Assembly (NCBI GenBank): GCA_026399075.1
Contig: JAPLRR010000027.1
Location: forward strand, 1 to 64,000
DNA: 64,000 bases
Reading direction: 5' to 3'
Source: Methylococcales bacterium
Lineage (GTDB): Bacteria; Pseudomonadota; Gammaproteobacteria; Methylococcales; Methylomonadaceae
The notes beneath the pieces are model-generated. The model did not search any database, was not told where the DNA came from, and was given only the letters and a program-made list of their open reading frames with translations. This document shows positions 26,992-55,606 of this stretch, piece by piece. A program made the position numbers and the translations under genes. Every line of letters starts with the position of its first letter. Position 1 is the stretch's first letter.

Positions 26992-27153
26992 AAAAATTGC
27001 TTCTGTGTTGTTTCGTGTATTGGTTTTTGATGTTCACTATAGTGGCGGGATTGCCTTCCCCCGCTTTGCCATTACTAATCGGCAAGCAAGCGTTTAAAAA
27101 AACACCTGATTAAGGCCATGCCAGTCCTGCACGACCTAATCAGTAAGCCGGGG

Positions 27154-27519
27154 TTATTTTTTTATGATCACCTTATCATCAATCACTAACTCAGAAATAC
27201 CGCCTAAAGAACCGAGCAAGGTACAGCTGGCTTTTTTAAAACCACCTGTCTTAACATTTTCGCCAGCCCAGATTAAAGTGACGTAGGTTTCTTTATCCGT
27301 TTTTGTTTCGGTTGGAAAAAACACTTGTTCGCCGGTTTTTTCTTTGATGAGCGCAGGACATTTTTCGCTCGCCATCGTTTGGATGGCAACAAGGTTCCTG
27401 ATATTTGATGAGGCTTCTTTTTGGGCAACTGTAGGTTCTTCTTTGCTCAAACCCACCATAATAAAGCCGGCCACAAAAACCCCAATAACTGCAATAACCA
27501 CTTTCATTGTTTCTGACAT
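27154..27519 (-). CDS. Membrane-anchored periplasmic protein, unknown
   Basis: 121 residues with an N-terminal hydrophobic helix (about 6-24) acting as anchor or uncleaved signal. The soluble part has two cysteines (EKCPALI and ASCTLLG) that could be disulfide-bonded. AGGAG nine bases upstream supports the ATG. No family is recognised. The gene lies between the cold-shock gene and aas, on the same strand as both, with gaps large enough for its own promoter. Confidence 0.65.
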   Translation of the reverse strand: MSETMKVVIAVIGVFVAGFIMVGLSKEEPTVAQKEASSNIRNLVAIQTMASEKCPALIKEKTGEQVFFPTETKTDKETYVTLIWAGENVKTGGFKKASCTLLGSLGGISELVIDDKVIIKK

Positions 27520-27779
27520 AGCGCTACTCCTAATAATTATTACAAAGACTGCCGCCTTAACGGCAAGTTAACATCGTGCTAAAACTCCTATGCAAGCTAC
27601 CTAGGCAATTTTATTGCCCGCACATAGGGCCAGGCGCTGTAGAACGCCCAACCCCACCATTGTATACTTCCCAGACAGATACGCTAGAGCGGTGATGGGC
27701 TTTTGCCATAATGGTAGCCATCGTAGCCCGTCGTTTCTAGCTTACAGCGTACTGGGCCGACACCTTAACCATTTAAACA

Positions 27780-29921
27780 TCAGGGTTTTCCGCTTGCTAA
27801 TGCAGTCACCGCCGGATAATTGGTCTTACCCGTCGCCATGACAGGGATTTCAGGAACGACTAAAATTTTCTTCGGCAAACTGATGGCGGCAACGCCGGGT
27901 GATGCCGCCGCCAAATCGGCAATCGTCGCCTGTTTTTGCGTGGTCAGCAAAATGACCTGTTCGCCTTTTTTGGGGTCGGGCAGGCTGATGGCGGCATGGT
28001 GCGCATCTGGCCACGCTGTGGTTGCCAATTGTTCAACCGCTGTTAAAGACACCATTTCCCCACCGACTTTGGCAAACCGTTTGCTTCGTCCACGGATACT
28101 GATAAAGCCTTCATCATCGACATGCACGATGTCGCCAGTATCATACCAGCCCTTGCCGTAGATAGATTCGGGTGGCACCACCACGCCCGGCTTATCGGCC
28201 AACAAATAACCCAGCATAATATTGGGGCCGCTGACATGCAATTTCCCACCCTCTTCGATACCTGGCACTGGCTCCAATTGGTGTTCCATGCACGGCATAA
28301 AACGGCCCACCGTGCCCGCCTTATAATAAAGCGGTGTGTTGACTGAGGTTATCGGTGAGGTTTCGGTAGCCCCATAACCTTCGAGGATACGGATACCAAA
28401 CTTATCCGCCCAAATTTGACGGGTGCTTTCTTGGAGTTTTTCTGCCCCCGCCACCACATAGCGCATATTGAACAAATCATAAGCATGGGCTTTTTTGGCG
28501 TAGGCCGCCAAAAAGGTGTTGGTGCCAAACATGATGGTGGCATGGATCTCGTAGGCCATTTCAGGGATGACGGTGTAATGCAATGGGCTGGGGTAAAAAA
28601 AGGTTTTCATGCCATTGATGATCGGCAGCATCGTGCCAACCGTAAAGCCAAAAGAATGGAACATGGGCAAGAAATTTAGGACGATGTCGCGGGCATTAAA
28701 ACTGATACAGGCTTCCAATTGCTTTAGGTTGCCAATGATATTGGCATGGGACAGCACCACCCCTTTGGGCGCGCCTTCTGAGCCGGAGGTAAATAAAATC
28801 ACAGCTGGGCTGTCTGGGCTTTGGCGTTTGGGGTCGTACCAAAAATCAGCGGTGAGGCATTTGACCAAGGCACTGAACTTATCCAGTGCCGAAATGTTTT
28901 TCGCCACATCTTCCAAGTAAATCAACTGGCATTGCTTACCCAACTGTCCGGCCTCTTCGCTTAATTCGCCCAAATCTATAAATCGGCGGGAGGTTACAAT
29001 GGTCTTGACCAGTGCTGTTTGGCACGCTGCCGCCATAGCCGCACTGCCAGTTGAATAATTTAACATGGCGGGCACGCGTCCGTAGATCTGCAAACCCAAG
29101 ATGGTCATTAAGGTTTTGGTGGAATTGGGCAAAAACACCCCCACATTTTCGCCGTCGCTAGTCTGGCTTTTTAATAGCTGGCCGATGATGAGGCTTCGTG
29201 TGATCAAATCGTTATAACTTAACGGCATGCGCTCCAAATCTTCGACAATTTTATGCTTGCCGCCGTGTATCTTGCGGGATTCCAACACGCTGGCAAAAAT
29301 AGTTTGCCGATACGGGCTGCTGACAAACATCATTTCAGTCATGATCTTGGCCAACAAATTGCCACAATAGGCACGACGGGCTTTGCCCCTGAGCGTTTCG
29401 GGGGCACAAATGGTGGTGGGTGGCAAAATCGAAATGGTAATTTTGGGAAATAAGCGCAAACGGACGATATTGTGCAATTTTGAAAAATGGGTATATTGGG
29501 CACCTGCGATGCGTATCGGCAAAACAGCGGCTTGGGATTTATCTGCGACCATCCCTGTGCCATCATAAATTTTCATTAAGGAGCCGGTCACGGTTATACG
29601 GCCTTCCGGGAATATGACGGTTTTGATGTCTTCTTCCAGATGATGGATCAAATCTTTCAGCGATAAAGGATGGGTAGGATCCATAGGAAACACCCGTGAC
29701 AAGCCTAAAAAAGGCTTTAACCACCAACGCTGGGAGATATGGGTGTTGATCGCAAACGTGATGTCATCGGGCAAAAACACGCCTAACAGCAATGGATCAA
29801 GAAAAGAAGTATGGTTAGCCACAATTAACACCCGTTTGCCAGCCTTGGTGTAATTGTCCAGGCCGATAACCTCGACCCTATAAAGTAAAATCAGTAATCT
29901 GCGTAAAAATTGTTTTAGCAT
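27780..29921 (-). CDS. aas: Bifunctional lysophospholipid acyltransferase / acyl-ACP ligase (Aas-like)
   Basis: 713 residues. The N-terminal PlsC domain (about 1-200) has NHTSFLD (the HX4D catalytic pair) and VFPEGRITVTGSL. The C-terminal AMP-ligase domain (about 215-700) has ILFTSGSEGAPKGVVLSHAN, EGYGATETSP, YDTGDIVHVDDEG and MATGKTNYPAV with the late lysine. Aas activates fatty acids onto ACP and uses them to re-acylate 2-acyl-lysophospholipids at the inner membrane. No MFS transporter domain (as in some fused LplT-Aas proteins) is present. GGAG precedes the ATG. It is divergent from the sterol genes. Confidence 0.92.
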   Translation of the reverse strand: MLKQFLRRLLILLYRVEVIGLDNYTKAGKRVLIVANHTSFLDPLLLGVFLPDDITFAINTHISQRWWLKPFLGLSRVFPMDPTHPLSLKDLIHHLEEDIKTVIFPEGRITVTGSLMKIYDGTGMVADKSQAAVLPIRIAGAQYTHFSKLHNIVRLRLFPKITISILPPTTICAPETLRGKARRAYCGNLLAKIMTEMMFVSSPYRQTIFASVLESRKIHGGKHKIVEDLERMPLSYNDLITRSLIIGQLLKSQTSDGENVGVFLPNSTKTLMTILGLQIYGRVPAMLNYSTGSAAMAAACQTALVKTIVTSRRFIDLGELSEEAGQLGKQCQLIYLEDVAKNISALDKFSALVKCLTADFWYDPKRQSPDSPAVILFTSGSEGAPKGVVLSHANIIGNLKQLEACISFNARDIVLNFLPMFHSFGFTVGTMLPIINGMKTFFYPSPLHYTVIPEMAYEIHATIMFGTNTFLAAYAKKAHAYDLFNMRYVVAGAEKLQESTRQIWADKFGIRILEGYGATETSPITSVNTPLYYKAGTVGRFMPCMEHQLEPVPGIEEGGKLHVSGPNIMLGYLLADKPGVVVPPESIYGKGWYDTGDIVHVDDEGFISIRGRSKRFAKVGGEMVSLTAVEQLATTAWPDAHHAAISLPDPKKGEQVILLTTQKQATIADLAAASPGVAAISLPKKILVVPEIPVMATGKTNYPAVTALASGKP

Positions 29922-30175
29922 GGATGGCTCCTTACATTATCAGAATGCGTATTGTATAGCTTATGTAGAGGATTTTAGATTTTTTGCCCCTGCGGCTATC
30001 AACAAATCTACCCATAAAGCCATAAGAATTGCCCCAGCCGATGAGAAATTTTTGTACAATGGGCAGCCACCGCGTAAAATTATCAATTGTTTGGCTATGC
30101 CCGTTACTTTCAAAGGCATAAGCTTCCTGAGGCAACCATTATTTATGGTGTATGCCCCCCTAACCAGATCAAGAT

Positions 30176-31807
30176 ATGACTAAAACAACTACCGAAAAAC
30201 CCGTGGCTACTGGCAAAGAACCCCCTAAAATGCCTGGCGCATTACCGCTTTTTGGACACATGCTTGAATTTGGCAAAAACCCCTTCCAATATATGATGAA
30301 ACTTAGGCTGCTGCTGGGTGAAATCGGCGAGTTTCGGATGTTCCATCAAAAAATGGTGCTAATGACCGGCCCCGAAGCCAACGAAGCCTTTTTTCGTGCG
30401 CCCGATGCCCAGCTAGACCAAAGCCAAGCCTATAAAATCATGACGCCTATTTTTGGCAAAGGCGTGGTTTTTGATGCCCCGCCCCATAAAAAAGACCAAC
30501 AGCTTAAAATGCTCATGCCGGTTTTGCGCGACAAGCCCATGCGTGGCTATGCGCAAGTGATAGTCCAGGAAGTGGAACAAATGGTCGCCGACTGGGGCGA
30601 CAGCGGCGAAGTTGATTTGCTGGCATTTATGAAAGAACTCACCATTTACACCTCCAGCCATTGCCTATTGGGCGATGAGTTTCGTTACGAACTCAATGAG
30701 GAGTTTGCCAAAATTTACCACGACCTGGAAAAAGGCGTGAACCCACTGGCGTTTGTGTTCCCCTATCTGCCTCTGCCCGTGTTTCGCCGCCGCGACAAGG
30801 CGCGCGCCAGACTACAGGAGTTAGTCACCGGCATCATTGCCAAACGCGCCCAGAAAACAGAAAAGAGCGAGGATGCTTTCCAATTGCTGATTGAAGCCCG
30901 CTATGACGATGGCAGCGGCTTATCGCCGCATGAAATCACCGGCATGTTGATCGGCACCATTTTCGCAGGCCACCACACCACCGCCGGCACCGCCGCATGG
31001 ACATTGCTGGAATTGGCGCGACGGCCTGAACAACTGGAGAAAGTGTTGGCCGAACTAGACCAGCATTTTGGTGTGGATGGTGAAGTGACTTTCCAATCTT
31101 TGCGTGAAATTCCAGTGCTGGAAAATGTCATAAAAGAAGTGTTGCGCTTGCATCCGCCATTGATATTTTTAATCCGCAAAGTCATGCAGGATTTTCATTT
31201 TAAAGGCTATACCGTCAAGGCCGGCAAATATGTCTGTGCCTCCCCGCGCGTTTCGCATCGTCTTGCCGAGGTGTTTCCCGACCCAGAAACCTTTGATCCT
31301 GACCGCTACTCAGAAGCCCGCCAAGAAGATGCCCAACCCTTTAGCTGGGTTGCATTTGGTGGCGGCAAGCATAAATGTACTGGAAACGCCTTCGCCATGT
31401 TGCAATTAAAGGCCATTTTTAGCATTCTGTTACGCCGTTATACTTTTGAACTCATCGACGACAAAGACCATTATCAGGACGACTTCACCCAAATGGTGGT
31501 GCAGCCCTTATCGCCCTGTCGGGTGCGCTATGTCAAACGCCAAAACGTGGTAACTGGCGTTGCCGGGCTTGCCGACCAAGCCACACAAACAACCGTGGCC
31601 AATGCCTCAGGCTTGCACATCAGCATAGACCGCGAACTGTGCCAAGGCCATGCCAGCTGCATGGGGGAAGCACCGGAATTGTTTCATGTTGACGAAGCGG
31701 GCAATGTCACTATCCTACAAGAAAACCCATTACTGGATTGGCTGGATAAAGCACGGCAAGCAGAAAAATACTGCCCCAGCAAAGCCATTAAAATCGAACT
31801 TAACTAA
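30176..31807 (+). CDS. Sterol 14-alpha-demethylase CYP51 fused to a 3Fe-4S ferredoxin
   Basis: 543 residues. Residues 15-455 are a P450: I-helix AGHHTTAG (264-271), ExxR at 321-324 (EVLR), and heme loop FGGGKHKCTGNA with Cys401 as axial ligand. An alanine-rich linker leads to a ferredoxin domain (about 479-542) with CQGHASC (Cys489, Cys495) and the distal Cys533 of YCPSKAI; the His in place of the second Cys indicates a 3Fe-4S cluster. This fusion is the arrangement described for Methylococcus capsulatus CYP51. It removes the 14-alpha-methyl of lanosterol-type sterols. A reductase for the ferredoxin is not nearby. Aas is divergent, and the NTF2-like gene follows after 20 bases. Confidence 0.95.
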   Translation: MTKTTTEKPVATGKEPPKMPGALPLFGHMLEFGKNPFQYMMKLRLLLGEIGEFRMFHQKMVLMTGPEANEAFFRAPDAQLDQSQAYKIMTPIFGKGVVFDAPPHKKDQQLKMLMPVLRDKPMRGYAQVIVQEVEQMVADWGDSGEVDLLAFMKELTIYTSSHCLLGDEFRYELNEEFAKIYHDLEKGVNPLAFVFPYLPLPVFRRRDKARARLQELVTGIIAKRAQKTEKSEDAFQLLIEARYDDGSGLSPHEITGMLIGTIFAGHHTTAGTAAWTLLELARRPEQLEKVLAELDQHFGVDGEVTFQSLREIPVLENVIKEVLRLHPPLIFLIRKVMQDFHFKGYTVKAGKYVCASPRVSHRLAEVFPDPETFDPDRYSEARQEDAQPFSWVAFGGGKHKCTGNAFAMLQLKAIFSILLRRYTFELIDDKDHYQDDFTQMVVQPLSPCRVRYVKRQNVVTGVAGLADQATQTTVANASGLHISIDRELCQGHASCMGEAPELFHVDEAGNVTILQENPLLDWLDKARQAEKYCPSKAIKIELN

Positions 31808-31827
31808 ACCGACACGGGACACAAAAC

Positions 31828-32427
31828 ATGGCCGCATATCCTAGGGCAGAACTTGAAGAAATGGTGGAACGCTGGTTGCAGGCCAACCGTGATGCCGAAA
31901 AAGAGGGCAACTGGCCCAAATACTTAGGTGCCATGTATACCGAAAATGCCGAATACCGCTGGAATATCGGCCCCAATGAAGAGTTTGTCGCCCGCAACCG
32001 CAAGCAAATTGAAGAATGGGCCTTAGGTGTGCAAATGGAAGGTTTTGAAGCTTGGCGTTACCCTTACCACCGCATCTTAATCGATGAAAAACAAGGCGAA
32101 GTGATCGGTTTGTGGACACAAGTGTCACCTGCTTTCCGTGAAGACGGCACACCTTACCAAGTGGAAGGCATCGGCGGTTCATGGTTCCGCTACGGTGGCA
32201 ATTACCAATGGGAATGGCAACGCGATTTCTTTGATTTGGGCAATGTCAAAGCCTTGTTTTTTGAATTGGCGGCAGATGGTAAGCTGGATATTGCCGTACA
32301 AAAAAAGATCGGCAAACTGGCAAAAGGCCAGTTATTACCAGGCCATGAACGCTTACGCCCCGCGCCTAGTGCGTGGAAAAAAATCAAAGGGGTGTTGGCG
32401 ATGGTGAGGATTGCGGTGTTGGGTTAG
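31828..32427 (+). CDS. SnoaL/NTF2-like protein next to CYP51
   Basis: 199 residues. Residues 5-140 show the cone-shaped NTF2-like pattern: a helical start (ELEEMVERWLQANRDAEKEG), then MYTENAEYRWNIGPN, a middle acidic strand, and GGSWFRYGGNYQWEWQRDFFD. The C-terminal 60 residues are Lys-rich. Members include steroid delta-isomerases and polyketide cyclases, but many are of unknown role. The 20-base gap to CYP51 implies an operon and so a role with sterol intermediates (inference). An isomerase, a hydratase or a substrate carrier would all fit. No catalytic residue set could be assigned. Confidence 0.75.
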   Translation: MAAYPRAELEEMVERWLQANRDAEKEGNWPKYLGAMYTENAEYRWNIGPNEEFVARNRKQIEEWALGVQMEGFEAWRYPYHRILIDEKQGEVIGLWTQVSPAFREDGTPYQVEGIGGSWFRYGGNYQWEWQRDFFDLGNVKALFFELAADGKLDIAVQKKIGKLAKGQLLPGHERLRPAPSAWKKIKGVLAMVRIAVLG

Positions 32428-32526
32428 CGTTCGGTCTTTGTAAGCACGATTGGTCTTGCCGCAAGCTTATCCCCTAAAGCTATACGATAATCCTGTTCTA
32501 ATCACGTTTCAAAACATTCTAGTATT

Positions 32527-33612
32527 ATGACTGAAAAACAATCCGGCATTCGCCTTAATCGTTTAACGATTGAGAACTATAAAAAAATTGATCGGTTAGA
32601 GATTGAGTTTCCGCGCCCGTTGATGACTGATGATGCCGATGTTTTATTGTTTGGCAGCGAAAATGGCGGCGGTAAAACATCGGTGCTTGAGTGTTGTGCT
32701 TTATTAATGTTGGCGGGGCAGATTGGCGAAAAATTCAATCCATTTAGAGAAGCGGAATCACCGCTGGACATTGCTGATTTATTAGTGAAAGCAGGACAGA
32801 CAGAAGCGACCCTAGGAGGGGATTTTACAAATAACAATAAATCTTGCCACGTCATGTTAGTAATCGATCGTGATGGTATTGTAGAAGTATATTTCCTAGG
32901 TGATGTTTTTATATTTGAACACCCTCGGCTATTCTCAATGGGCAATGCAGTTAATAGCCTTTTTGCTTTTTCTGGCGAACCATTACTTATTCCACCTTTA
33001 TTGCATTTTAATAGCTACCGGAAAATTCAGGAATCCAATCCTGAGCTGGGGATGATGGCTGATGATTATCATATTGTTCGTCCCAATACCTTTCCGCGTT
33101 TGGGTGCGCGCAACCCAAGTAACCCAGTCAGTTCGTTTAAATTGGAAATACTACGCGCCTTAATGGGGCAAGCGTCTTTGTTTGAGGGCTTAAAACAAGA
33201 GGTAGCCCAATCGGTATTATCGCAATTGAACCACCTTATTCAACGTTATTGCGGCGGGGAAATCGAGCAGTTAAAACTTTTGCCGGATTATAAAGTGGAT
33301 ATACGCATCAAACCCACTAGCGGCGGCGAATCTTTTTCTTTTGATGGCTTAAGTTCAGGCCAAAAAGAAATGATTGCCACACTTTTTCTGATTTGGCGCA
33401 ATAGTCAAGAACAGCCGTGTATCGTTTTAATTGACGAACCCGAGTTACATTTGAATGCGCAGTGGCATGGTGATTTTGTTAGGCAGCTATATAAACTCGC
33501 TCCTCAGAACCAGTACATTCTGGCAACCCATTCAGAAGCCATGTTCCGTTCGGTCGATGAACGCCAACGTGCCATTTTAGTCCCTGATGATGTGGGTGAT
33601 GTGCCGTTATGA
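32527..33612 (+). CDS. AAA ATPase of a PARIS-like defence pair (AriA-like)
   Basis: 361 residues of the ABC/SMC-like AAA15/AAA21 class. Walker A GSENGGGKTS (43-52), signature-like LSSGQKEMIATLF, Walker B CIVLIDEPELHLNAQWHG and a final ATHSEAMF switch histidine are all present. No long coiled coil is visible, as in AriA and OLD-type ATPases. Its stop overlaps the start of the DUF4435 gene by four bases (ATGA). In PARIS, AriA holds the AriB effector until a phage anti-restriction protein is sensed; that mechanism is known for characterised systems and only inferred here. It lies between sterol genes. Confidence 0.82.
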   Translation: MTEKQSGIRLNRLTIENYKKIDRLEIEFPRPLMTDDADVLLFGSENGGGKTSVLECCALLMLAGQIGEKFNPFREAESPLDIADLLVKAGQTEATLGGDFTNNNKSCHVMLVIDRDGIVEVYFLGDVFIFEHPRLFSMGNAVNSLFAFSGEPLLIPPLLHFNSYRKIQESNPELGMMADDYHIVRPNTFPRLGARNPSNPVSSFKLEILRALMGQASLFEGLKQEVAQSVLSQLNHLIQRYCGGEIEQLKLLPDYKVDIRIKPTSGGESFSFDGLSSGQKEMIATLFLIWRNSQEQPCIVLIDEPELHLNAQWHGDFVRQLYKLAPQNQYILATHSEAMFRSVDERQRAILVPDDVGDVPL

Positions 33613-34499
33613 GATGGCAACAAGGGGGTGATGCCACACGTGTGCTTCAAAATGCCAGGCACACGCTATTTGTGGAAGGCAAGGACAACCAAGAAATTGA
33701 TGCCGTTGTTATCCAAGAGCTGTTGAATGCTAATGGCTTGACAGCCATCGACGTGCAAACAATGGGCAGCTGCGATAATGTCCGCAGTGCCGCCCAAGCA
33801 TTGATAGCGGCACATCCGTCGTATTATTTTCTGATTGACCGTGACGACCAAGACCAAGCAAGCGTTGACAGTTCTTGGATTAAGTTTCCAGACCCTTCGG
33901 CGTATAATATGCTGATTTGGCGTAAAAGGGAGTTGGAAAACTATTTTATAGACCCTGCTTATCTTAGCCAATCTCAGTTTCTAAAGCCTAATGTTGATGT
34001 TAAACAACGCATCCTTGATGAGTGCAATCGACGGCTATTTCTTGATTCGGCAAATTTAACGTTATATGCCCTTAGCCGGGAATTACGGAAACCATTGGCA
34101 ATTCGGCATTTTGCTAACCCCGACCTATTTCAAAATGAAGATGACGGTTTGTTGCAATTAGGGCAATTATCCCAATTTGCTAATAAAACTAGCGAAGTGG
34201 CAGCTATTCTAAATGGGGCAAGAATTAATGGCATCTATTTAGACTTTGTGCAGGAATTAAGCGGCGGCGTTTTCCCGCTACAATATGGCTCTGGCACATG
34301 GCTAGAGCGCATGTCGGGCAAAGAAGTTTTTCACGCTATTGCCAGCCAATGTTTTCTGGTGAAAGACGCTTCTGGCACCGTGTTAACAGGCAAAGCGCAA
34401 AATAAACAGATTGCCAAACAGTTGGCTAGATTGCCCTTAGCCCAACAACCCGTTGATTTTCAAGAGCTGGTTGCTTTGTTAAAAACAAGACTAAACTAG
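33609..34499 (+). CDS. DUF4435 / TOPRIM-like effector of a PARIS-like pair (AriB-like)
   Basis: 296 residues. The TOPRIM-type acidic motifs are visible: LFVEGKDN (Glu23), TMGSCDNV and YFLIDRDDQD (Asp77, Asp79). RKRELENYFI follows, typical of DUF4435. In PARIS systems the AriB protein is a TOPRIM nuclease that, when freed, cleaves host tRNA and aborts infection. It is translationally coupled to the ATPase gene by the ATGA overlap. The downstream sterol cyclase gene starts 87 bases later. OLD-family proteins with a fused TOPRIM are the alternative relative, but here the two parts are split as in PARIS. Confidence 0.8.
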   Translation: MRWQQGGDATRVLQNARHTLFVEGKDNQEIDAVVIQELLNANGLTAIDVQTMGSCDNVRSAAQALIAAHPSYYFLIDRDDQDQASVDSSWIKFPDPSAYNMLIWRKRELENYFIDPAYLSQSQFLKPNVDVKQRILDECNRRLFLDSANLTLYALSRELRKPLAIRHFANPDLFQNEDDGLLQLGQLSQFANKTSEVAAILNGARINGIYLDFVQELSGGVFPLQYGSGTWLERMSGKEVFHAIASQCFLVKDASGTVLTGKAQNKQIAKQLARLPLAQQPVDFQELVALLKTRLN

Positions 34500-34586
34500 C
34501 ATAAGCCTTCGAAGAAGATGAAAGTTTCAACGACCATCATTAATGTGTTAAAAAGCCGATCCGGCTCTAACCCCTAATAAATATCA

Positions 34587-36821
34587 ATGCTGAAAATAAA
34601 ACCAAGCTGGAAAAACTGGCAACTACTTACCGAAAAAGGACGGCATATCTGGGCATACAAGCCCGGTTCCACAACTATCGACGCACACTTACATAATGTT
34701 GGCCAACTAACGGCGGAAGAAATAAGCCAGTTTGCTGAAGATTTTCAATTTGATAAAAACGAAAACCCCAATTCCGGCGACCAAGTGTTCAGACACGCCG
34801 CCATCAATGCAAAATACCAAGCCTTTGCCGGACAAATCCCCAAAGCCCACAACCCAGAAGCACAACTCGCCACCGATGCCCTAGTCAAAGGCATCAATTA
34901 TTATTCATTCTTGCAAAGCCCCGAAGGCCATTGGCCTGGCGATTACGGCGGGCCATTATTTTTATTGCCAGGTTTATTGATCGCATCGTATATTTCCAAC
35001 ACCCCATTCCCTGAACCGCACCGGGAAATGATGAAGCTGTATTTATTCAACCACCAAAATAAAGACGCTGGCTGGGGGATGCACATCGAAGGCCAATCAA
35101 CCATGTTTGGCACAGTCATGCAATATGTATCCCTGCGTATCTTGGGCGTGGACAAAGACCATGGACAACTGCAAAAAGCCAGGGCATGGATTAAGGCCAA
35201 CGGCGGCGCAACCGGCATCCCTTCGTGGGGAAAGTTTTATCTGGCGATTTTAAATTGTTACGATTGGCAAGGTTTTAACAGCCTGTTCCCCGAAATGTGG
35301 TTATTCCCAAAATGGTTGCCTGTGCATCCGTGGCGTTATTGGTGCCATAGCCGCATGGTCTATCTGCCAATGGCTTATTGCTATGCCATGCGTATTAAGG
35401 CGCCGGAAGATGCGCTGATATTGTCCCTGCGGGAAGAATTGTATAGCCAAGATTTTGCGTCCATAGACTGGCCTAAACACCGCAATACTGTGTGTGAAAA
35501 AGATTGCTACACAATTTTGTCACCCGTATTAAAATGGATGAACTTTTTTACCAATGGCTATGAAAAGATAAAATGCAGTTGGTTAAGAAAAAAAGCCACG
35601 GACTATATTGTCAAGTACCTAAATGCTGAAGATGCCCAAACCGATTACGTCAATATAGGCCCGGTTAGTAAAGCCATCAATTCTATCTGTAGCTGGCATG
35701 TTTATGGCAAAGGTTCTGAACAATTTAGCAAACATGTAGCGCGTTGGTATGATTATTTGTGGGTTGCCGAAGATGGCATGAAGATGAGCGGTTATAATGG
35801 CTCGCAACTTTGGGACACAGCATTTGCCACGCGGGCGATGCTGGAAAGTGAGGTGGGGCGCTTATTTCCTGAAACCCTGGCAAAAAGTTATGCGTTTATC
35901 GATTATGCGCAAATCAAAGCCGAACACCCGACCCATGCCGAATTTTTCCGCCATCCAATGGTCGGCAGCTGGCCTTTTTCCACCCCTGAGAATGGCTGGC
36001 CTGTTGCAGATTGTACCGCAGAAGGGTTAAGCGCCACTTTGGCCCTCCACCAGTCCGGCCTAATTGTGCCAAAAATTGACGATCAGCGCATACAACAGGC
36101 GGTAGATGTAATATTGTCATACCAAAATGCCGATGGCGGCTGGGCCACTTACGAATTGTCACGTGCGCCTAAATGGCTAGAAAAACTGAATCCATCTGAA
36201 GTTTTTGCCGATATAATGATCGACTATTCTTGGACTGAATGCACGGCTGCCTGTGTGGTAGCACTACTGGACATGCAAGCAGCCAATCCGGATTACCGAA
36301 ACGAACAACTACAAAAAGCCATAACCGCTGGCCTACACTTTATTCTTAAACAACAAAAGCCAGACGGTTCGTGGTATGGTGGTTGGGCAGTCTGTTTTAC
36401 CTACGCCACGTGGTTTGGCGTAGAGGCCTTGGCTAAAGCCAAAGGTAAAGGCTATATTGATGATACGGCTATCGCAGCAAGCCTCAACAAAGCTAGTGCC
36501 TTTTTGATGGCCAAACAAAAAGCCGACGGTGGTTGGGGCGAAACTTTTGAATCCTGTTCCAAATTGGTTTATACCGAAGCCTTGGCATCGCAAGTGGTCA
36601 ACACCGCGTGGGCCTTGCTGGCGTTAATGGCCGCTGATTATGGTGACAAACAAGTTATTGATGCTGGGGTTAATTTATTGCTGGACAGACAAACAGCACT
36701 GGGCGATTGGCCGCAAGAAAATATTTCCGGGGTTTTTAATTATAACTGTATGATAACCTATGCCAATTATAGGAATAGTTTTCCTATCTGGGCGTTGAGC
36801 CGATACTGTAAGCAGTCTTAG
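34587..36821 (+). CDS. osc: Oxidosqualene cyclase (lanosterol-synthase type)
   Basis: 744 residues of the squalene/oxidosqualene cyclase fold. The protonating motif is ADCTAEG with Asp475; squalene-hopene cyclases have DXDD instead, so this acts on 2,3-oxidosqualene. Several QW-type repeats are visible (NADGGWATYE, KPDGSWYGGW, KADGGWGE, LGDWPQE). It forms the tetracyclic sterol skeleton at the membrane. The following gene encodes the epoxidase that makes its substrate. It is preceded by the ATPase-DUF4435 pair instead of the CYP51 operon. Confidence 0.95.
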   Translation: MLKIKPSWKNWQLLTEKGRHIWAYKPGSTTIDAHLHNVGQLTAEEISQFAEDFQFDKNENPNSGDQVFRHAAINAKYQAFAGQIPKAHNPEAQLATDALVKGINYYSFLQSPEGHWPGDYGGPLFLLPGLLIASYISNTPFPEPHREMMKLYLFNHQNKDAGWGMHIEGQSTMFGTVMQYVSLRILGVDKDHGQLQKARAWIKANGGATGIPSWGKFYLAILNCYDWQGFNSLFPEMWLFPKWLPVHPWRYWCHSRMVYLPMAYCYAMRIKAPEDALILSLREELYSQDFASIDWPKHRNTVCEKDCYTILSPVLKWMNFFTNGYEKIKCSWLRKKATDYIVKYLNAEDAQTDYVNIGPVSKAINSICSWHVYGKGSEQFSKHVARWYDYLWVAEDGMKMSGYNGSQLWDTAFATRAMLESEVGRLFPETLAKSYAFIDYAQIKAEHPTHAEFFRHPMVGSWPFSTPENGWPVADCTAEGLSATLALHQSGLIVPKIDDQRIQQAVDVILSYQNADGGWATYELSRAPKWLEKLNPSEVFADIMIDYSWTECTAACVVALLDMQAANPDYRNEQLQKAITAGLHFILKQQKPDGSWYGGWAVCFTYATWFGVEALAKAKGKGYIDDTAIAASLNKASAFLMAKQKADGGWGETFESCSKLVYTEALASQVVNTAWALLALMAADYGDKQVIDAGVNLLLDRQTALGDWPQENISGVFNYNCMITYANYRNSFPIWALSRYCKQS

Positions 36822-36873
36822 GGATGATAAACGCATCAACGCAGTTTCAAGTAATTGTACCAAAAAGCTAAAT

Positions 36874-38220
36874 ATGAAATCAGAATTCGACATTTGCATT
36901 ATCGGCGCAGGCATGGCGGGCGCCACTATCGCCGCTTATCTCGCCCCCAAAGGCATCAGGATTGCGTTAATCGACCATTGCTACAAGGAAAAAAAGCGCA
37001 TCGTCGGAGAATTATTACAGCCAGGCGCTGTCCAGTCTTTGCAACAGATGGGGCTAGGGCACTTGCTGGACGGATTTGAGGCACAGCCTGTAGATGGCTA
37101 CGCGCTTGTGCAAGGTAACGAACAGATCACCATCCCCTACCCTAGTCATTACCGGGGCATGGGCTTGCATAATGGCCGCTTTTTACAACAAATCCGGTCT
37201 AGCGCCTTGCTCAACACCAGTGTCCAACAAATCCATGGCAAAGCGTTACAGTTACTGGAAAATGATCGCCAAGAAATTATCGGGGTCAGTTACAGGGAAT
37301 CTGTCACCTCAGAAATTAAAACTATCCATGCCCCCTTAACCATCACCAGCGACGGCTTCTTCTCAAACTTCCGGGAACATTTAAGCAACAACCAAAAATC
37401 TGTCACCTCCTACTTTATCGGGGTTATTTTAAAAGATTGCGACATGCCTTTCCCCAAACACGGGCATGTGTTTTTATCCGGCCCCACGCCGTTCATTTGC
37501 TATCCCATTTCCGACCACGAGGTCCGGCTGTTAATTGATTTTCCAGGCGAGCAACTACCAAGGAAACAATTGCTGCAAGCCCATTTGGATGCCAATGTGA
37601 CACCCTACATCCCCGAATGTATGAAGCAAAGCTACGAACAAGCCTTGCAAACTGGTGGCTTTAAGGTCATGCCCAACCATTATATGGCGGCCAAGCCCAT
37701 CATCCGCAAAGGCGCGGTGATGTTGGGCGACGCGCTTAATATGCGCCACCCATTAACGGGCGGCGGTTTGACGGCGGTGTTTTCGGACATCCAGATATTA
37801 AGCACACACTTATTGGCCATGCCCGATTTTAGCAACACCGACCTCATACATGAGAAAATCGAAGCCTACTACCGTGACCGCCAAAACGCCAACGCCAACC
37901 TGAATATTCTTGCCAATGCCTTATACGGCGTAATGTCCAATGATTTGCTCAAAACCGCTGTCTTCAAATACCTGCAATGCGGCGGCAGCAATGCCCAAGA
38001 ATCAATCGCCATCTTGGCCGGCCTCAACAGAAACCATTTTTCCCTGATCAAACAATTCTTTTTCCTGGCCATGTTCGGTGCTTACGATTTGGTGCGCGAA
38101 AACAGCCGGAATATCTCTAAAGCCAGCAAAATCCTCGTGGATGCCTTCGCCATCATCAAACCCTTGGCAAAAAATGAGCTTTCCTTTGCGGCGGTGGTGA
38201 GTGGGTATTTTAAGAAATAG
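36874..38220 (+). CDS. sqmo: Squalene monooxygenase (epoxidase)
   Basis: 448 residues. FAD-binding GAGMAG near residues 11-16 (ICIIGAGMAGATIAAYLAP) and RIVGELLQPGAVQSLQQMG follow the squalene-epoxidase pattern. The second FAD motif MLGDALNMRHPLTGGGLTAV is the strongest family mark. The enzyme uses O2 to convert squalene to 2,3-oxidosqualene, the substrate of the cyclase 52 bases upstream. The C-terminal 120 residues are hydrophobic and likely membrane-associated. No transmembrane N-terminus is present, unlike eukaryotic forms. Confidence 0.94.
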   Translation: MKSEFDICIIGAGMAGATIAAYLAPKGIRIALIDHCYKEKKRIVGELLQPGAVQSLQQMGLGHLLDGFEAQPVDGYALVQGNEQITIPYPSHYRGMGLHNGRFLQQIRSSALLNTSVQQIHGKALQLLENDRQEIIGVSYRESVTSEIKTIHAPLTITSDGFFSNFREHLSNNQKSVTSYFIGVILKDCDMPFPKHGHVFLSGPTPFICYPISDHEVRLLIDFPGEQLPRKQLLQAHLDANVTPYIPECMKQSYEQALQTGGFKVMPNHYMAAKPIIRKGAVMLGDALNMRHPLTGGGLTAVFSDIQILSTHLLAMPDFSNTDLIHEKIEAYYRDRQNANANLNILANALYGVMSNDLLKTAVFKYLQCGGSNAQESIAILAGLNRNHFSLIKQFFFLAMFGAYDLVRENSRNISKASKILVDAFAIIKPLAKNELSFAAVVSGYFKK

Positions 38221-38569
38221 ACTAGCGTAGCCTCAACTTGGTTTTATAGCCAACCCATTCCTGCGGTTAAATTTAATCTGCAAAACTTTGGGTTTGGTCT
38301 TCGGCAAGTGGCCTTTTAAACTTAGTATTCGGGGTAATTTAATCCCCGATAAAGTTCAACAACGCTCACCAGTTTCGTATGATTTTTTATGGCAGTCGGT
38401 AGGAATAACACCGTAGAAAATTCGCTCGTTGATGGGCATCAATAAGCATTCGCCAATTTTTAACTTTTCGAATTTGTTAAGCACAGCCTATTCGAGGAGA
38501 TGGGCAAAAATAGCCTAGCTGGAATGGAAAGATAGTCGGTTGCAATTCAAATTTTGAATAAACCCTTAA
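38221..38569. other. Gene-free stretch after squalene monooxygenase
   Basis: No supported reading frame, tRNA or obvious terminator was found in these 350 bases. It is the start of a 0.9-kb decayed zone that ends at the IS66-type element. Confidence 0.4.
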
Positions 38570-38836
38570 ATACGACCTAGCTTAGCCGCTATGTCCTATT
38601 TTTACACTTATGTCGGCTGTACCCGATTTATAGAAGCAGAATTTATAGCGGAATACATTGTTGATAAAGATTTGGAGCAAGAATGTATTGATTAGTATGC
38701 CTTTAAAAATGCCAGCCATCATGTTTGGCCTTATTGGCGGGAGTTTTTAATGAGTCAATGTACTAGAATGTATTTGCCCAGATTGGTTTTACTGACTGCA
38801 CAGCTTGCACATAACCGACATCAGAATGGTTCTTAG
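38570..38836 (+). pseudogene. Decayed SecB-like chaperone gene fragment
   Basis: One frame reads through a single TAG (38693-38695). Before it stands MSYFYTYVGCTRFIEAEF, and after it VWPYWREFLMSQCTRMYLP, ending at a TAG at 38834-38836. The WPYWRE...LP stretch resembles the C-terminal half of SecB-family proteins, including the SecB-like chaperones of toxin-antitoxin-chaperone systems. The N-terminal half of the family is missing or too degraded to see. The family call is from memory of the motif and is tentative; that the frame is broken is direct. Confidence 0.4.
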
Positions 38837-39144
38837 TGCCAATAGATACAACTCAGCATATTTTTTGCGTTGGAACCGCATCAATCTCGAAAAATGCGGT
38901 TCGCTACATCAGCTCTATGGAAAATCTACAGGGTTAATTCGTCCAGCGAACAAGAAAGAGGAAGATATGGTAAAAATGTCAGGAGGAGATGCCATTTTTT
39001 ACTTTTTACGACAGCGTTGGTGGAAGATATGAAAAAAGCCATCTTACACATTTTTAAAAAATGGTCTGTTAAGCAAACTGCTGCATTTTTGGGTTCTTTC
39101 ACTGTCAGTATCGCCGAACCCGCGCCTTACGGGTTACTTAGTAG

Positions 39145-39163
39145 GTAATTACTCAGCGTAATT
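39145..39163. repeat. Left terminal inverted repeat of the IS66-type element
   Basis: GTAATTACTCAGCGTAATT, directly preceded by the target duplication CTTAGTAG at 39137-39144. Confidence 0.9.
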
Positions 39164-39216
39164 ACCAACCCTTCCAAATTATGACATTGACTAGCATGAT
39201 ACAAGCGCCCATGCAG

Positions 39217-40650
39217 TTAAAGAATAAAGTCCGGCAATCTGCCTTCAAAAAGCATAGTCAGTGCATCGGTGGCGGAAACATTGTTTTTACGGCAAGTCGA
39301 TAAATAACTGCGCACACGGCAAAAGATCTTCGCCCCATCCATTGACCGGAAGCAACCGGAGATTTTCTGATGCAGCTTGGTCATGCGAATATCATTTTCC
39401 CCCTGATTATTGGAAAAGGATACCTCCGCATCGGTCATGAAGCGTAGCGTTTCTTGCTCAAAATCCCGCAATCGTTCCAGTAGATTCCGGGATTTGCTGC
39501 GTTTGATGCGCCCCCGCTTTTTGCGTCCTTTCCCTTCCGGCTCTGGCGGTGGCGGGCATTCCAACTCCGCCTGCTTTAATATCGCCCGGTATTGTTCGCG
39601 GTACTGGACGGCTTGATCTTCATGTAACATTCCGCCCTGTGCATAAACCTCATCCAGAATACCTTCCAATAGGTCGATCATCAATTTTGCCCAGGCCTGC
39701 CCCTCTTGTTCATGGGCAAAAGCCAATTCCCGTAAGTGGTGGGCATTGCATAAGGCATGCTGGCAAATAAGTTTGAAATACGGTTTCCAATGGTCGTGAA
39801 CCAGAATGCCGGAAAACAGGGTTATCAGGGGCAAGCTTTCCATTGCCTCCAGTCCGCGTTTTTCATGCGCGTAATACAGCGTCCACAGCGGACTGGACAC
39901 GCAGTGTAACCAGCGGTTTTTGCCATTGATATTAATGCCCGTCTCATCGGCATGAACCACCCGCGTATGCAGTAGTTTGGCGATCAGCTTTTGCTCAAAC
40001 TCCCCAAGCAGTTCATAGGCCTGTTGGTTATAAGCAAAAATCGACCCCTCGCTGAGGGGTAGCTCCAGTTGCTCCTGGAAGTGCTCTTGAACCCTATTAT
40101 AGGGAATCAATTGATACTGCGACAAATACACCGACTGGGCTTTGACACCGTTGCCGTACTGGGCGGCTTTAATCACGCCCGCCGGGAAGGGCGCTGTAAA
40201 GCGTTGTCCTTGCTGGTTTTCCAAAATTTCGGCTTGGTATTCGATCACGACGCGTCGGATGTCAATATCAAACACTTGGCGGGAGTCGAAACCGACCACC
40301 GTATAGTCGCCGGGCGGCAAAAGGCTCCGGTCGACCGCCAGGAGTTTAATCACATCGGGATTGTCAATCTTTTCCAGCGTGGTGCCGATGCGGCCCGGCT
40401 GACCTCCGGTTTTTTTCCCGGAGCCCCCTTTATCACCTTTCCCGCCCTTGCCAAAACGATTTGATGAGGGTGGCTGGCTACTGTTACGGCTGTTCAAATT
40501 CAAACGGCCCGCCATGATCTGCACCAGCATAATCAGTATGCCCAGTATGCCCAGTACCGTACGCAAAGCCGGTGACAATTGCGGTTCATCGGCAAGCATC
40601 TGCTTGGCCGTTTTAATCGTGGACTCCACGTCAATGTCATCGACTGTCAA
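39217..40650 (-). CDS. tnpC: IS66-family transposase (TnpC type)
   Basis: 477 residues. A short helical N-terminus with LNSRNSSQPPSSNRF, the Lys/Gly-rich GKKTGGQPG stretch (typical of IS66 TnpC), and the DDE domain: VVHADETGI (first Asp), GILVHDHWKPYF (second Asp), CNAHHLREL, and SFSNNQGENDIRM with the Glu. It ends with the usual RSYLSTCRKN segment. A Lys/Arg-rich loop (GKGRKKRGRIKRSKSRN) is inserted before the last part. The frame begins with TTG at 40650; no nearby upstream ATG exists. It is apparently intact. Confidence 0.93.
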   Translation of the reverse strand: MTVDDIDVESTIKTAKQMLADEPQLSPALRTVLGILGILIMLVQIMAGRLNLNSRNSSQPPSSNRFGKGGKGDKGGSGKKTGGQPGRIGTTLEKIDNPDVIKLLAVDRSLLPPGDYTVVGFDSRQVFDIDIRRVVIEYQAEILENQQGQRFTAPFPAGVIKAAQYGNGVKAQSVYLSQYQLIPYNRVQEHFQEQLELPLSEGSIFAYNQQAYELLGEFEQKLIAKLLHTRVVHADETGININGKNRWLHCVSSPLWTLYYAHEKRGLEAMESLPLITLFSGILVHDHWKPYFKLICQHALCNAHHLRELAFAHEQEGQAWAKLMIDLLEGILDEVYAQGGMLHEDQAVQYREQYRAILKQAELECPPPPEPEGKGRKKRGRIKRSKSRNLLERLRDFEQETLRFMTDAEVSFSNNQGENDIRMTKLHQKISGCFRSMDGAKIFCRVRSYLSTCRKNNVSATDALTMLFEGRLPDFIL

Positions 40651-48864: not shown

Positions 48865-50181
48865 ATGAGATCAATTTGGGATAACTGCCTTACAAAGCTG
48901 GAAAATGAAATTGCAGGTGTTGATTTCAGCACTTGGATACGCCCTCTACAAGCAATAGAAAACGATGGGCAAATGAAACTTTTGGCCCCAAACCGATTTG
49001 TATTGGACTGGGTTAAGCAGCATTATTTTGTCAAAATTGAAGAATCAATCAATGAGTTTTCCAATGGGACTATGGACTTAATTTTTGAGATTGGATCAAA
49101 AAAATCAATAACACCCGTTGCTATAAGCAGGGAAAAACCAGCGGAAGTAAAAAAATCTAGCCCCAACTTTCTTAATAAAACATTCACTTTTGAAAATTTT
49201 GTTGAAGGTAAATCCAATCAATTAGCTCGAGCTGCTTCAATTCAAGTTTCTGAAAATATTGGCAAAGCTTACAATCCTTTGCTTATTTATGGTGGTTCTG
49301 GCTTAGGTAAGACCCACATCATGCACGCCATAGGTAATGCTGTCTTCCAAAAAAATCCCTCCGCAACTATCGTTTATCTGCACTCGGAAAAATTTGTCCA
49401 GGACATGGTCAGGGCTTTGCAACAGAACTCCATTAACGCTTTCAAGGAATATTATCGCAGTATAGACGTTCTTTTAATTGACGACATCCAATTCTTTGCT
49501 GGTAAGGAACGCTCCCAAGAAGAGTTTTTCCATACCTTCAATACGTTACTCGATAAAAAGCATCAAATCGTTTTAACTTGTGACAAATACCCTAAAGAAA
49601 TTATTGGTCTCGAAGACCGTTTAAAATCAAGGTTTGGTTGCGGTCTCCCCGTTTCAATTGAGCCGCCTGATATGGAAACTAGGGCGGCTATCTTAATGAA
49701 AAAGGCAACCCAGGCTAATGTTGAACTTCCTCAGGACGTTGCGTTTTTTATTGCCAAAAAGATCCCCTTCAATGTCCGCGACCTTGAAGGGGCTTTAAGG
49801 CGGGTAATAGCCAATGCACAATTTACAGGACGTGAAATTACCATTGAATTTACTAAAGAAGCCCTCCATGACTTAATTTCGTTAAAAGATAAGTTGGTCA
49901 GTATCGACAATATCCAAAAAACCGTCGCCGAATATTTTAAAATTCGTATTTCTGACTTATCGTCTAAAAATCGGAAACAAACCGTTACCCGCCCACGACA
50001 AATGGCCATGTGCTTAGCGAGGGAACTAACATCACACAGTTTCCCAGAAATTGGCGATGCGTTCGGTGGCCGCGATCACACCACTGTAATGAACGCTTGT
50101 AAAAAAATTAATGAATTAAAAGAAGCAGACCATAAAATTGCAGAGGACTACTCCAATTTGTTACGGACGCTTTCGCATTAA
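48865..50181 (+). CDS. dnaA: Chromosomal replication initiator DnaA
   Basis: 438 residues. Domain I covers about 1-80 ([21 protein letters not shown]), a short linker domain II follows, AAA+ domain III has [17 protein letters not shown] and [21 protein letters not shown], and domain IV has the DNA-binding signature [15 protein letters not shown]. The linker is short compared with pseudomonads. Sensor-adjacent [17 protein letters not shown] replaces the usual WGLTVAIEPPELETR. DnaA boxes follow the stop codon at once. Confidence 0.98.
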
Positions 50182-50966
50182 CTGTGGATAACCTTGTGTT
50201 CAACTTAACAAATACTGGGGAACACAATGTGCATAGCTTTTAACTATAATCGATGGTGAATTTTAATACACCAATTATCCACAATCAGCCTACAGATTAG
50301 TTAACAATATAAGCTATTGTATTTAAAAGTTAATAAAAGTTATCAACAAACAATCCTGTTGCTAATAACAATTAAATAAAAAATAAAAAATTTTTTATAA
50401 TTAACTAAACTTTCTTATTTTTTCTAATCAATAGCTTTTTAAATTTGGATGTTATGTTACCGACCTGTGGATAACTCTGTTGATAAGGAACGTAAATATG
50501 GGGTTAAAACTGTGTATAGAACGTTGTGTGTATTTAATTCTAATCGTTTATATAGTCTTCATACACATGTTAAATACAAAATAAAAATACCCATAAATAA
50601 TTGATTAATATAATAAAATAACTGTTATCAACAGATTTTTAGCCCTTAATAGTAATAAGAAAGAATAAATAGTTCTATATTACTATTTCTTAACAACAAA
50701 GAAATTTCCAAAACGATTTTATCTATTAAGTACTTAGCAACAAGTTGTCATACATACCGTATCGATTTTATGGCGTATTTTGTAGAGTTGATCAAGGAAA
50801 ATACATGTTAACTTTTTGCAATTCACTTATGATTTAGCTTAATCATGCAAGCGATTGGATATGTCTGGCTGGTAAGTTCTTCACCAAAAGTAACCTTACT
50901 TTATCAAACATTCAAAATCCACAGCTTACTACCCAAAATAATTTGTAACTCAATGACACAAAAATT
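50182..50966. other. oriC: Probable chromosomal origin of replication (oriC)
   Basis: A 785-base AT-rich, gene-free stretch between dnaA and dnaN. Perfect DnaA boxes (TTATCCACA or complement) are at 50183-50191, 50275-50283 and 50466-50474. One-mismatch boxes lie at 50228, 50340, 50478, 50511 and 50635. A/T-only runs at about 50365-50450 and 50540-50720 are candidate unwinding elements. The 50466/50478 pair is 3 bases apart and in one orientation. GATC is scarce here, which argues against SeqA/Dam control. Confidence 0.9.
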
Positions 50967-52067: not shown

Positions 52068-52077
52068 GGTTTGCTAT

Positions 52078-55606
<3,529 letters not shown>

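What the first reader, a model, noticed from the sequence alone, without database searches (positions are those of the whole stretch)
32527..34499. PARIS-like ATPase + DUF4435 pair embedded in a sterol locus
Seen: an AAA15-type ATPase gene and a TOPRIM-motif DUF4435 gene overlapping as ATGA. Known: this is the composition of the PARIS anti-phage system (AriA/AriB). Inferred: it forms a functional defence unit here, possibly a divergent branch, because the ATPase is compact (361 residues). Its location is unusual, as nothing around it is prophage- or integrase-like.
Basis: partly seen in the sequence, partly recalled or inferred. Interest (0 to 1): 0.75.

Follow-up and report, generated by a model that had tools for sequence, protein, structure and literature searches.

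The report
PARIS-like defence pair inserted in sterol operon
Two overlapping genes, an ATPase and a metal-dependent nuclease distantly related to a known bacterial anti-virus system, have landed between the sterol-making genes of a methane-eating bacterium; they belong to an unnamed branch that a standard annotation rule misses.

Summary
The two genes are real and at the stated coordinates: ATPase A (32527-33612, 361 aa) and TOPRIM protein B (33609-34499, 296 aa), overlapping by ATGA. Nearest named system for B: PARIS. 19 of 19 B members (window included) match PADLOC's AriAB model, and B's profile aligns with three AriB-type proteins over 179 columns, far above 50 shuffled controls. TOPRIM acids are invariant in the 19. 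But B scores 13.4 bits against Pfam DUF4435 (cut-off 27), failing the published PARIS rule (PMC9122126), and hardly resembles the best-scoring AriB-type group tested. So: a divergent PARIS-like branch, not a strict member. Both genes, or traces of them, stand together at 23 of 23 loci found, intact at 18. The sterol setting is an insertion: 29 of 29 other methanotroph loci inspected keep CYP51-SnoaL-OSC-SE without the pair, and homology breaks near 32420 and 34570-34579. The 'compact ATPase' argument is weak: E. coli AriA is 464 aa, but AriA-type partners here are 301-456 aa. Defence, trigger and target are inferred. Likeliest mechanism: the ATPase holds and releases a TOPRIM nuclease, giving abortive infection.

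The parts
32527..33612 (+). ATPase A (361 aa), AriA/PtuA-like ABC-type ATPase: proposed sensor and holder
32653..32682 (+). Walker A of A (residues 43-52, GSENGGGKTS); G43, S44 and N46-S52 invariant in 11 members, window included
   Evidence: coordinates computed from the ORF start
33346..33369 (+). ABC signature of A (GLSSGQKE, residues 274-281), invariant in the same 11
33421..33438 (+). Walker B of A (IVLIDE, residues 299-304); D303 and E304 invariant in the same 11
33609..33612 (+). ATGA overlap of the A stop and B start; a 4-nt overlap in 13 of 18 intact pairs
33609..34499 (+). TOPRIM protein B (296 aa), divergent AriB-like protein: proposed nuclease effector
33675..33677 (+). B residue E23 (presumed TOPRIM catalytic glutamate; lines up with the VEG motif of AriB-type proteins), invariant in 19 members
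33837..33845 (+). B residues D77-R78-D79 (presumed TOPRIM DxD), invariant in 19 members
33924..33941 (+). B KRELEN (residues 106-111); K106, E108, E110 and N111 invariant in 19 members; aligned with IESY/IENY of AriB-type proteins
32421..34571 (+). Approximate extent of the inserted segment, between the SnoaL-like gene's 3' end and the cyclase gene; right edge uncertain by tens of bases
   Evidence: (29 empty sites)
31828..32427 (+). SnoaL-like sterol-operon gene whose last codons differ at the left insertion edge
34587..36821 (+). Oxidosqualene cyclase (squalene/oxidosqualene cyclase family; lanosterol-synthase type inferred), the conserved next gene of the sterol operon

Best explanation
A two-gene ATPase-TOPRIM pair of the PARIS type (split, 'class 4' OLD architecture), forming a divergent branch that was inserted as a cassette into a methanotroph sterol operon. 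Shown here: two overlapping genes kept together; intact ATPase motifs; invariant TOPRIM acids; distant homology of B to some AriB-type proteins; purifying selection in relatives; insertion into a conserved operon. Inferred by analogy to PARIS: A oligomerises and holds B inactive; a phage product displaces B; freed B dimerises and cleaves an essential RNA (in E. coli PARIS, tRNA-Lys/Thr/Asn), stopping translation and phage growth. The actual trigger and substrate are unknown.
For: B: PADLOC AriAB (PDLC02981) matched by 19 of 19 members and AriB by 10 of 19; no GajA, OLD or other system's model matched at E<=0.01. Profile-profile of B against three AriB-type proteins (Salmonella L102, L057, L045): probability 95.2, score 61.9, 179 columns; best of 50 column-shuffled controls, all parsed, 1.8 and 22.8. 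The OLD alignment against the same three: 12.1. Against OLD-class proteins B aligns over 100 columns, probability 81; gyrase TOPRIM (one sequence) 0.1. E23, D77, D79, K106, E108 and E110 invariant in 19. A and B, or traces, together at 23 of 23 loci; pairwise identities of A and B correlate at r=0.92 over 153 non-independent comparisons; dN/dS 0.07-0.18 in relatives. Of 18 neighbour proteins scanned at 13 related loci, chosen by eye, 5 at 4 loci match defence or toxin-antitoxin models: DRT reverse transcriptase UG22 (425 bits) just upstream and a weak IetA (52 bits) downstream in L014, a type IV restriction model (179 bits) in L018, PemK in L010 and an addiction antidote in L015. In both loci with only one broken gene (L012, L043) it is the nuclease (both are draft assemblies). 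PARIS mechanism: PMC12409363 (abstract, sections 3, 23, 24, passages) and PMC11455837 (whole text).
Against: DUF4435 threshold not met (13.4 vs 27 bits). Against a mixed set of 10 AriB-type proteins the profile probability was 25.5, lower than against OLD. Subgroup by subgroup, only L045 (94.7) and L057 (84.2) resemble B; the group of L049, the highest PADLOC AriB score seen (143 bits), gave 0.6, L053 0.4, L055 0.8, L046 8.1, and L102 alone 64.7. One of 19 members matches Pfam OLD-like_TOPRIM at E 0.009. The experimentally studied E. coli AriB was never compared directly: no AriB chain was found in the PDB sequences by B, its profile, L045 or L102. A's best matches are PtuA, not AriA. The predicted fold of B gave no PDB match at E<=0.001, its TOPRIM part being poorly modelled. 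No defence gene recognised beside the window pair; 13 of the 18 neighbour proteins scanned at related loci gave no defence match or an ordinary one. No match in phages, plasmids or viral contigs, the last by short peptide patterns only. No expression or phage data.
Confidence: 0.65

Rival explanations
1. A separate split ATPase-TOPRIM defence class, not PARIS: an independent pairing of a PtuA-like ATPase with a TOPRIM nuclease, with its own trigger and target (RNA or DNA).
For: A ranks PtuA models and PtuA structures first. B fails DUF4435, aligns to OLD TOPRIMs at probability 81, and gives 0.6 against the L049-type AriB group. B members are 37-71 % identical to the window's B.
Against: B aligns to L045, L057 and L102 beyond the TOPRIM core (179-187 columns). 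19 of 19 B members match AriAB. PtuA-first ranking also occurs for the ATPase of L045.
Confidence: 0.25
2. A toxin-antitoxin or addiction-like module kept by selfish linkage, with phage defence incidental.
For: Patchy occurrence (7 of 201 family genomes), positions among metabolic genes, nuclease lost first in 2 of 2 loci with one broken gene. A commentary files PARIS itself under toxin-antitoxin systems (PMC11455837, whole text).
Against: In E. coli PARIS deletion of either gene was non-toxic, which its authors took to exclude a TA system (PMC9122126 passages). Some relatives sit beside defence genes.
Confidence: 0.07
3. A housekeeping or regulatory role tied to sterol synthesis.
For: Same strand and operon-like position between sterol genes. 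L008 also has the pair directly upstream of cyclase and epoxidase genes. An archaeal OLD protein has a cell-cycle role (PMC12796447 passages).
Against: In the same 201-genome sample, B is not found in the other 67 cyclase-bearing genomes, and the cyclase (E<=1e-150) not in the six other B-bearing ones (some genomes incomplete). 29 of 29 inspected loci lack the pair. L008's A is closer to Methylobacter L014, outside the sterol locus (86 vs 69 %).
Confidence: 0.03

Closest known systems
PARIS (AriA/AriB), including the AriAB fusion and the Salmonella BREX-linked pair
   Same: ATPase gene followed by a separate overlapping TOPRIM gene; ATPase length as in the Salmonella pair (363 aa); homology of B to some AriB-type proteins over the TOPRIM and the following helical part; Glu and DxD kept
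   Different: B below the DUF4435 cut-off and 14.7 bits to AriB, where six AriB-type proteins give 48-143 bits (five of the six were found with AriB or DUF4435 models, so they score well by selection). Against AriAB B's 28.5 bits exceed those of L102 (17.0) and L057 (20.9). Solved E. coli AriA is longer (464 aa). Trigger and RNA target unknown
Septu / retron type I-A PtuA ATPases
   Same: A's best sequence and fold matches (79 bits; Foldseek top ranks, from a low-confidence model)
   Different: The PtuA partner is the HNH nuclease PtuB (PMC12409363 section 3); here the partner is TOPRIM-like; no reverse transcriptase or annotated retron RNA next to the window pair
OLD family classes 1-3 (P2 Old, Gabija GajA, retron Eco8)
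   Same: ABC ATPase plus TOPRIM logic; TOPRIM profile similarity (probability 81 over 100 columns)
   Different: Those are single polypeptides, with GajB helicase or a reverse transcriptase in classes 2 and 3 (PMC10568477 passages); no such gene among the flanking genes scanned here

Membership tests
PARIS | Adjacent ATPase and TOPRIM genes (or one fusion) | tested here: met
   23 of 23 related loci, traces included
PARIS | ATPase reaches AAA_15 >= 32 or AAA_21 >= 27 bits (rule in PMC9122126, passage) | tested here: met
   52.2 and 44.8 bits
PARIS | Partner reaches DUF4435 >= 27 bits (same rule) | tested here: not met
   13.4 bits; 9 of 19 members match at E<=0.1, best 2e-5; a PF14491 search of 101 family genomes found nothing in G000 and reported only other contigs in G026 and G097
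PARIS | TOPRIM acidic residues intact | tested here: met
   E23, D77, D79 invariant in 19 members, aligned with VEG and DRD of AriB-type proteins
PARIS | Effector homologous to AriB beyond a generic TOPRIM | tested here: met
   Probability 95.2 over 179 columns with L102+L057+L045, shuffles at most 1.8; but 25.5 against a mixed AriB set, 0.6 against the L049 group, and E. coli AriB itself not compared
PARIS | ATPase closest to AriA | tested here: inconclusive
   PtuA 79.0, AriAB 73.1, AriA 64.4 bits; the control L045 shows that the ranking is not diagnostic
PARIS | AriA hexamer sequesters AriB; release by a phage protein; tRNA cleavage; abortive infection | not testable with these tools
   No heteromer prediction and no experiment; mechanism taken from PMC12409363 and PMC11455837
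Septu | HNH nuclease PtuB as partner | tested here: not met
   B has no HNH match in Pfam or PADLOC at E<=1 and has TOPRIM motifs
Gabija (class 2 OLD) | ATPase-TOPRIM in one protein plus adjacent GajB helicase | tested here: not met
   Separate genes; adjacent genes are sterol genes; B matches no GajA model at E<=1
Retron type I | Adjacent reverse transcriptase and ncRNA | tested here: not met
   No reverse transcriptase among the flanking genes scanned; no Rfam hit in 27000-40000; the reverse transcriptase beside L014 is best matched by the DRT model UG22

The most novel reading that the evidence does not exclude
A and B are a distinct, so far uncatalogued class of split ATPase-TOPRIM immunity (PtuA-like sensor, AriB-like nuclease) that moves as a bare two-gene cassette into metabolic operons of methanotrophs, purple sulphur bacteria and other lineages, is missed by DUF4435-based surveys, and senses and cleaves something other than what E. 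coli PARIS does.
Probability: 0.27. Interest if true: 0.6.

Novelty: new variant of a known kind. Interest (0 to 1): 0.4.

Why it matters
It shows a branch of PARIS-like immunity that the published detection rule would miss, so PARIS-type systems may be undercounted. It also gives a clear case of a probable defence cassette interrupting a conserved biosynthetic operon, with the empty site seen in 29 relatives. That makes the cassette's ends and possible effects on sterol genes testable.

Tried and rejected
Compact ATPase as a sign of divergence: weakened. A is shorter than E. coli AriA (464 aa), but AriA-type partners here are 301-456 aa (nine proteins) and the Salmonella one is 363. PtuA-first ranking as evidence for Septu: rejected as non-diagnostic after the control L045. 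Fold search: B's model has pLDDT 77.8 overall but block means of 50-62 over residues 51-110, which hold DxD and KRELEN, and Foldseek gave nothing at E<=0.001; A's model is poor (59.3), so its PtuA matches are weak support. Solved-structure search found no match for B or its profile at E<=10. AriAB fusions: none at E<=1e-25 in 203 class genomes, but no control rang either, so uninformative. REP-like or terminal repeats as the insertion mechanism: a short inverted GGGTTAG/CTAACCC at the two edges was seen by eye; the REP pattern gave 0 matches in the window, the left-edge word 1 (itself), and the left-edge stretch matched nowhere else in the genome, so no mechanism is claimed. A promoter or terminator of its own: 8 promoter-like sites against 5.7 expected and 2 terminator-like against 4.1 in the region scanned, so no evidence. 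Shared ancestry of the window and L008 insertions: not supported by the A tree (window with L016, support 0.97), unresolved in B (window with L008, 0.42); L008's contig shows no SnoaL gene in the 374 bases upstream of A. Rfam: nothing in 27000-40000.

Full report
Observation. A is an AAA_15/AAA_21 ATPase above both Pfam cut-offs. B's DUF4435 match is 13.4 bits, half the cut-off. Adjacent genes are CYP51 fused to a ferredoxin domain, a SnoaL-like protein (below Pfam's cut-off), an oxidosqualene cyclase and a squalene epoxidase.

Relatives. B was found in 7 of 201 genomes of the family, 2 of 369 of the class and, with a profile, 11 of 398 of the phylum, the window's own genome counted each time, and at 5 genome-contig loci. 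There was none in phages or plasmids, nor in viral contigs by peptide patterns. A and B, or traces of them, stand together at all 23. Eighteen have both genes as full ORFs and were used for trees. The five dropped are L012 and L043 (B deleted internally or N-terminally, A whole), L020 (both truncated), L044 (contig end) and L040 (A's called ORF lacks the first part). A precedes B on one strand in all 18; the overlap is 4 nt in 13 of 18. Named hosts are Methylobacter and another Methylococcaceae MAG, Thiodictyon and a Chromatiaceae MAG, and a Spirulina MAG that could be a binning error.

What B is. Across 19 members, window included, V22-E23-G24, D77-R78-D79, W104, K106, E108, E110, N111 and F113 are invariant. 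PADLOC AriAB matches 19 of 19 and AriB 10 of 19; no other system's model reaches E 0.01. In Pfam, 9 of 19 match DUF4435 at E<=0.1, 4 DUF3226 and 1 OLD-like_TOPRIM. AriB-type proteins used as yardsticks score 143 (L049), 73 (L057), 68 (L102), 66 (L045), 58 (L046) and 48 (L055) bits against AriB models, B 14.7; all but L102 were fetched with AriB or DUF4435 models, so they score well by selection. Profile-profile comparison gave 95.8 with L057+L045 over 187 columns and 95.2 with L102+L057+L045 (score 61.9; best of 50 shuffles 22.8), with VEG, DRD and the E-N/S-Y motif in register. Against that, L102 alone gave 64.7, the L049 group 0.6, L053 0.4, L055 0.8 and L046 8.1, a mixed set of ten 25.5, and OLD proteins 81 over the TOPRIM alone. 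B is therefore tied to one side of the AriB-type spread, not to its best-scoring group, and E. coli AriB itself was not compared. L102 is a Salmonella pair; a PARIS homologue in the Salmonella D23580 BREX island is named in PMC11341690 (passages), which saw no activity for it under its conditions. That L102 is the same kind of locus is inferred from its restriction-enzyme, Lon-like and STM-tagged neighbours.

What A is. Walker A, signature, Walker B and the switch histidine H335 are invariant in 11 members. It ranks PtuA 79, AriAB 73, AriA 64 bits, and PtuA is first in solved structures by sequence and by Foldseek. Because L045's ATPase, with an AriB-type partner, also ranks PtuA first, this does not separate Septu from PARIS; the partner does.

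Insertion. In the 201-genome sample 68 genomes hold the cyclase at E<=1e-150. B was not found in the other 67, and the six other B-bearing genomes do not hold the cyclase. Loci were fetched for 29 of those 67: in 29 of 29 CYP51, SnoaL-like, cyclase and epoxidase follow one another without A or B, with about 15-300 bases between SnoaL-like and cyclase genes. Homology to these empty sites ends at 32420 in 11 of 29, earlier in the rest, and resumes at 34570-34579 in 17 of 29, later in the rest. The insert is thus about 2.15 kb, little more than the two genes. Locus tags of CYP51, cyclase and epoxidase in Methylobacter luteus (1253, 1255, 1256) fit the same order (PMC4919349 passages). L008 also carries the pair before cyclase and epoxidase, but its A is 86 % identical to Methylobacter L014 and 69 % to the window's (its B 72 and 71 %), so one shared event is not shown.

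Habit. I scanned 18 neighbour proteins at 13 related loci, chosen by eye and without a control set. Five at four loci match defence or toxin-antitoxin models: DRT UG22 upstream and a weak IetA-like ATPase downstream in L014, a type IV restriction model in L018, PemK in L010, an addiction antidote in L015. Others are ordinary, such as 2-oxoacid dehydrogenase E2 before the pair in L011 and L012. DUF4435 genes in L048 and L049 run into prephenate dehydrogenase. Embedding in a metabolic operon is therefore not special to the sterol genes.

Mechanism. From PARIS (PMC12409363: abstract, sections 3, 23, 24; PMC11455837: whole text): a hexameric ATPase holds the TOPRIM protein, a phage protein triggers release, and the released dimer cleaves tRNA, two-metal catalysis being proposed and E26 needed. 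Here matching residues exist, and purifying selection acts on both genes in relatives (dN/dS 0.07-0.18, eight comparisons over four locus pairs, none with the window). Where only one gene is broken it is the nuclease (2 of 2, draft assemblies). Assembly, trigger, substrate and defence are inferred.

Known or new. OLD classes and the place of PARIS as class 4 come from PMC10568477 and PMC12796447 (passages). By the published rule (PMC9122126, passages) the pair is not PARIS; by homology and architecture it is PARIS-like. In the literature searches (listings seen) I saw no paper on this branch or on such a pair in a sterol operon; most subscription papers are not held. I file it as a new variant of a known kind.

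Noticed in passing
window 31828-32427: A SnoaL-like protein lies between CYP51 and the cyclase in 29 of 29 inspected methanotroph sterol loci at 84-90 % identity, at least as conserved as the cyclase, yet Pfam SnoaL_2 is below its cut-off (17.8 vs 27 bits). I know of no assigned role in sterol synthesis.
   Followed up: partly
window 48865-55606: dnaA, dnaN, an SMC_N/RecF-type gene and gyrB in order, with a 785-base AT-rich gap after dnaA (probable replication origin) and yidC and mnmE just before; the sterol genes end about 10.6 kb away.
   Followed up: no
L014 4475-11395: Methylobacter cluster of a DRT-type UG22 reverse transcriptase, the A-B pair and a weakly IetA-like AAA ATPase: a possible small defence island.
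   Followed up: partly
L048-L052: Another ATPase-DUF4435 family in several Methylococcaceae (L049 scores AriA 197, AriB 143 bits); in L048 and L049 the DUF4435 gene overlaps prephenate dehydrogenase, and in L049 an aminotransferase precedes the pair.
   Followed up: partly
L018 6515-7918: The ATPase ORF has an in-frame N-terminal extension of about 107 aa with a CPNC motif (weak DUF7835, below cut-off), possibly a fused zinc-ribbon domain.
   Followed up: partly
window 39217-40650: IS66-type transposase gene on the minus strand about 1 kb past the squalene epoxidase gene.
   Followed up: no
L012, L043: Two loci keep an intact ATPase but have lost a large part of the nuclease gene; both are draft assemblies, L012 close to a contig end.
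   Followed up: partly
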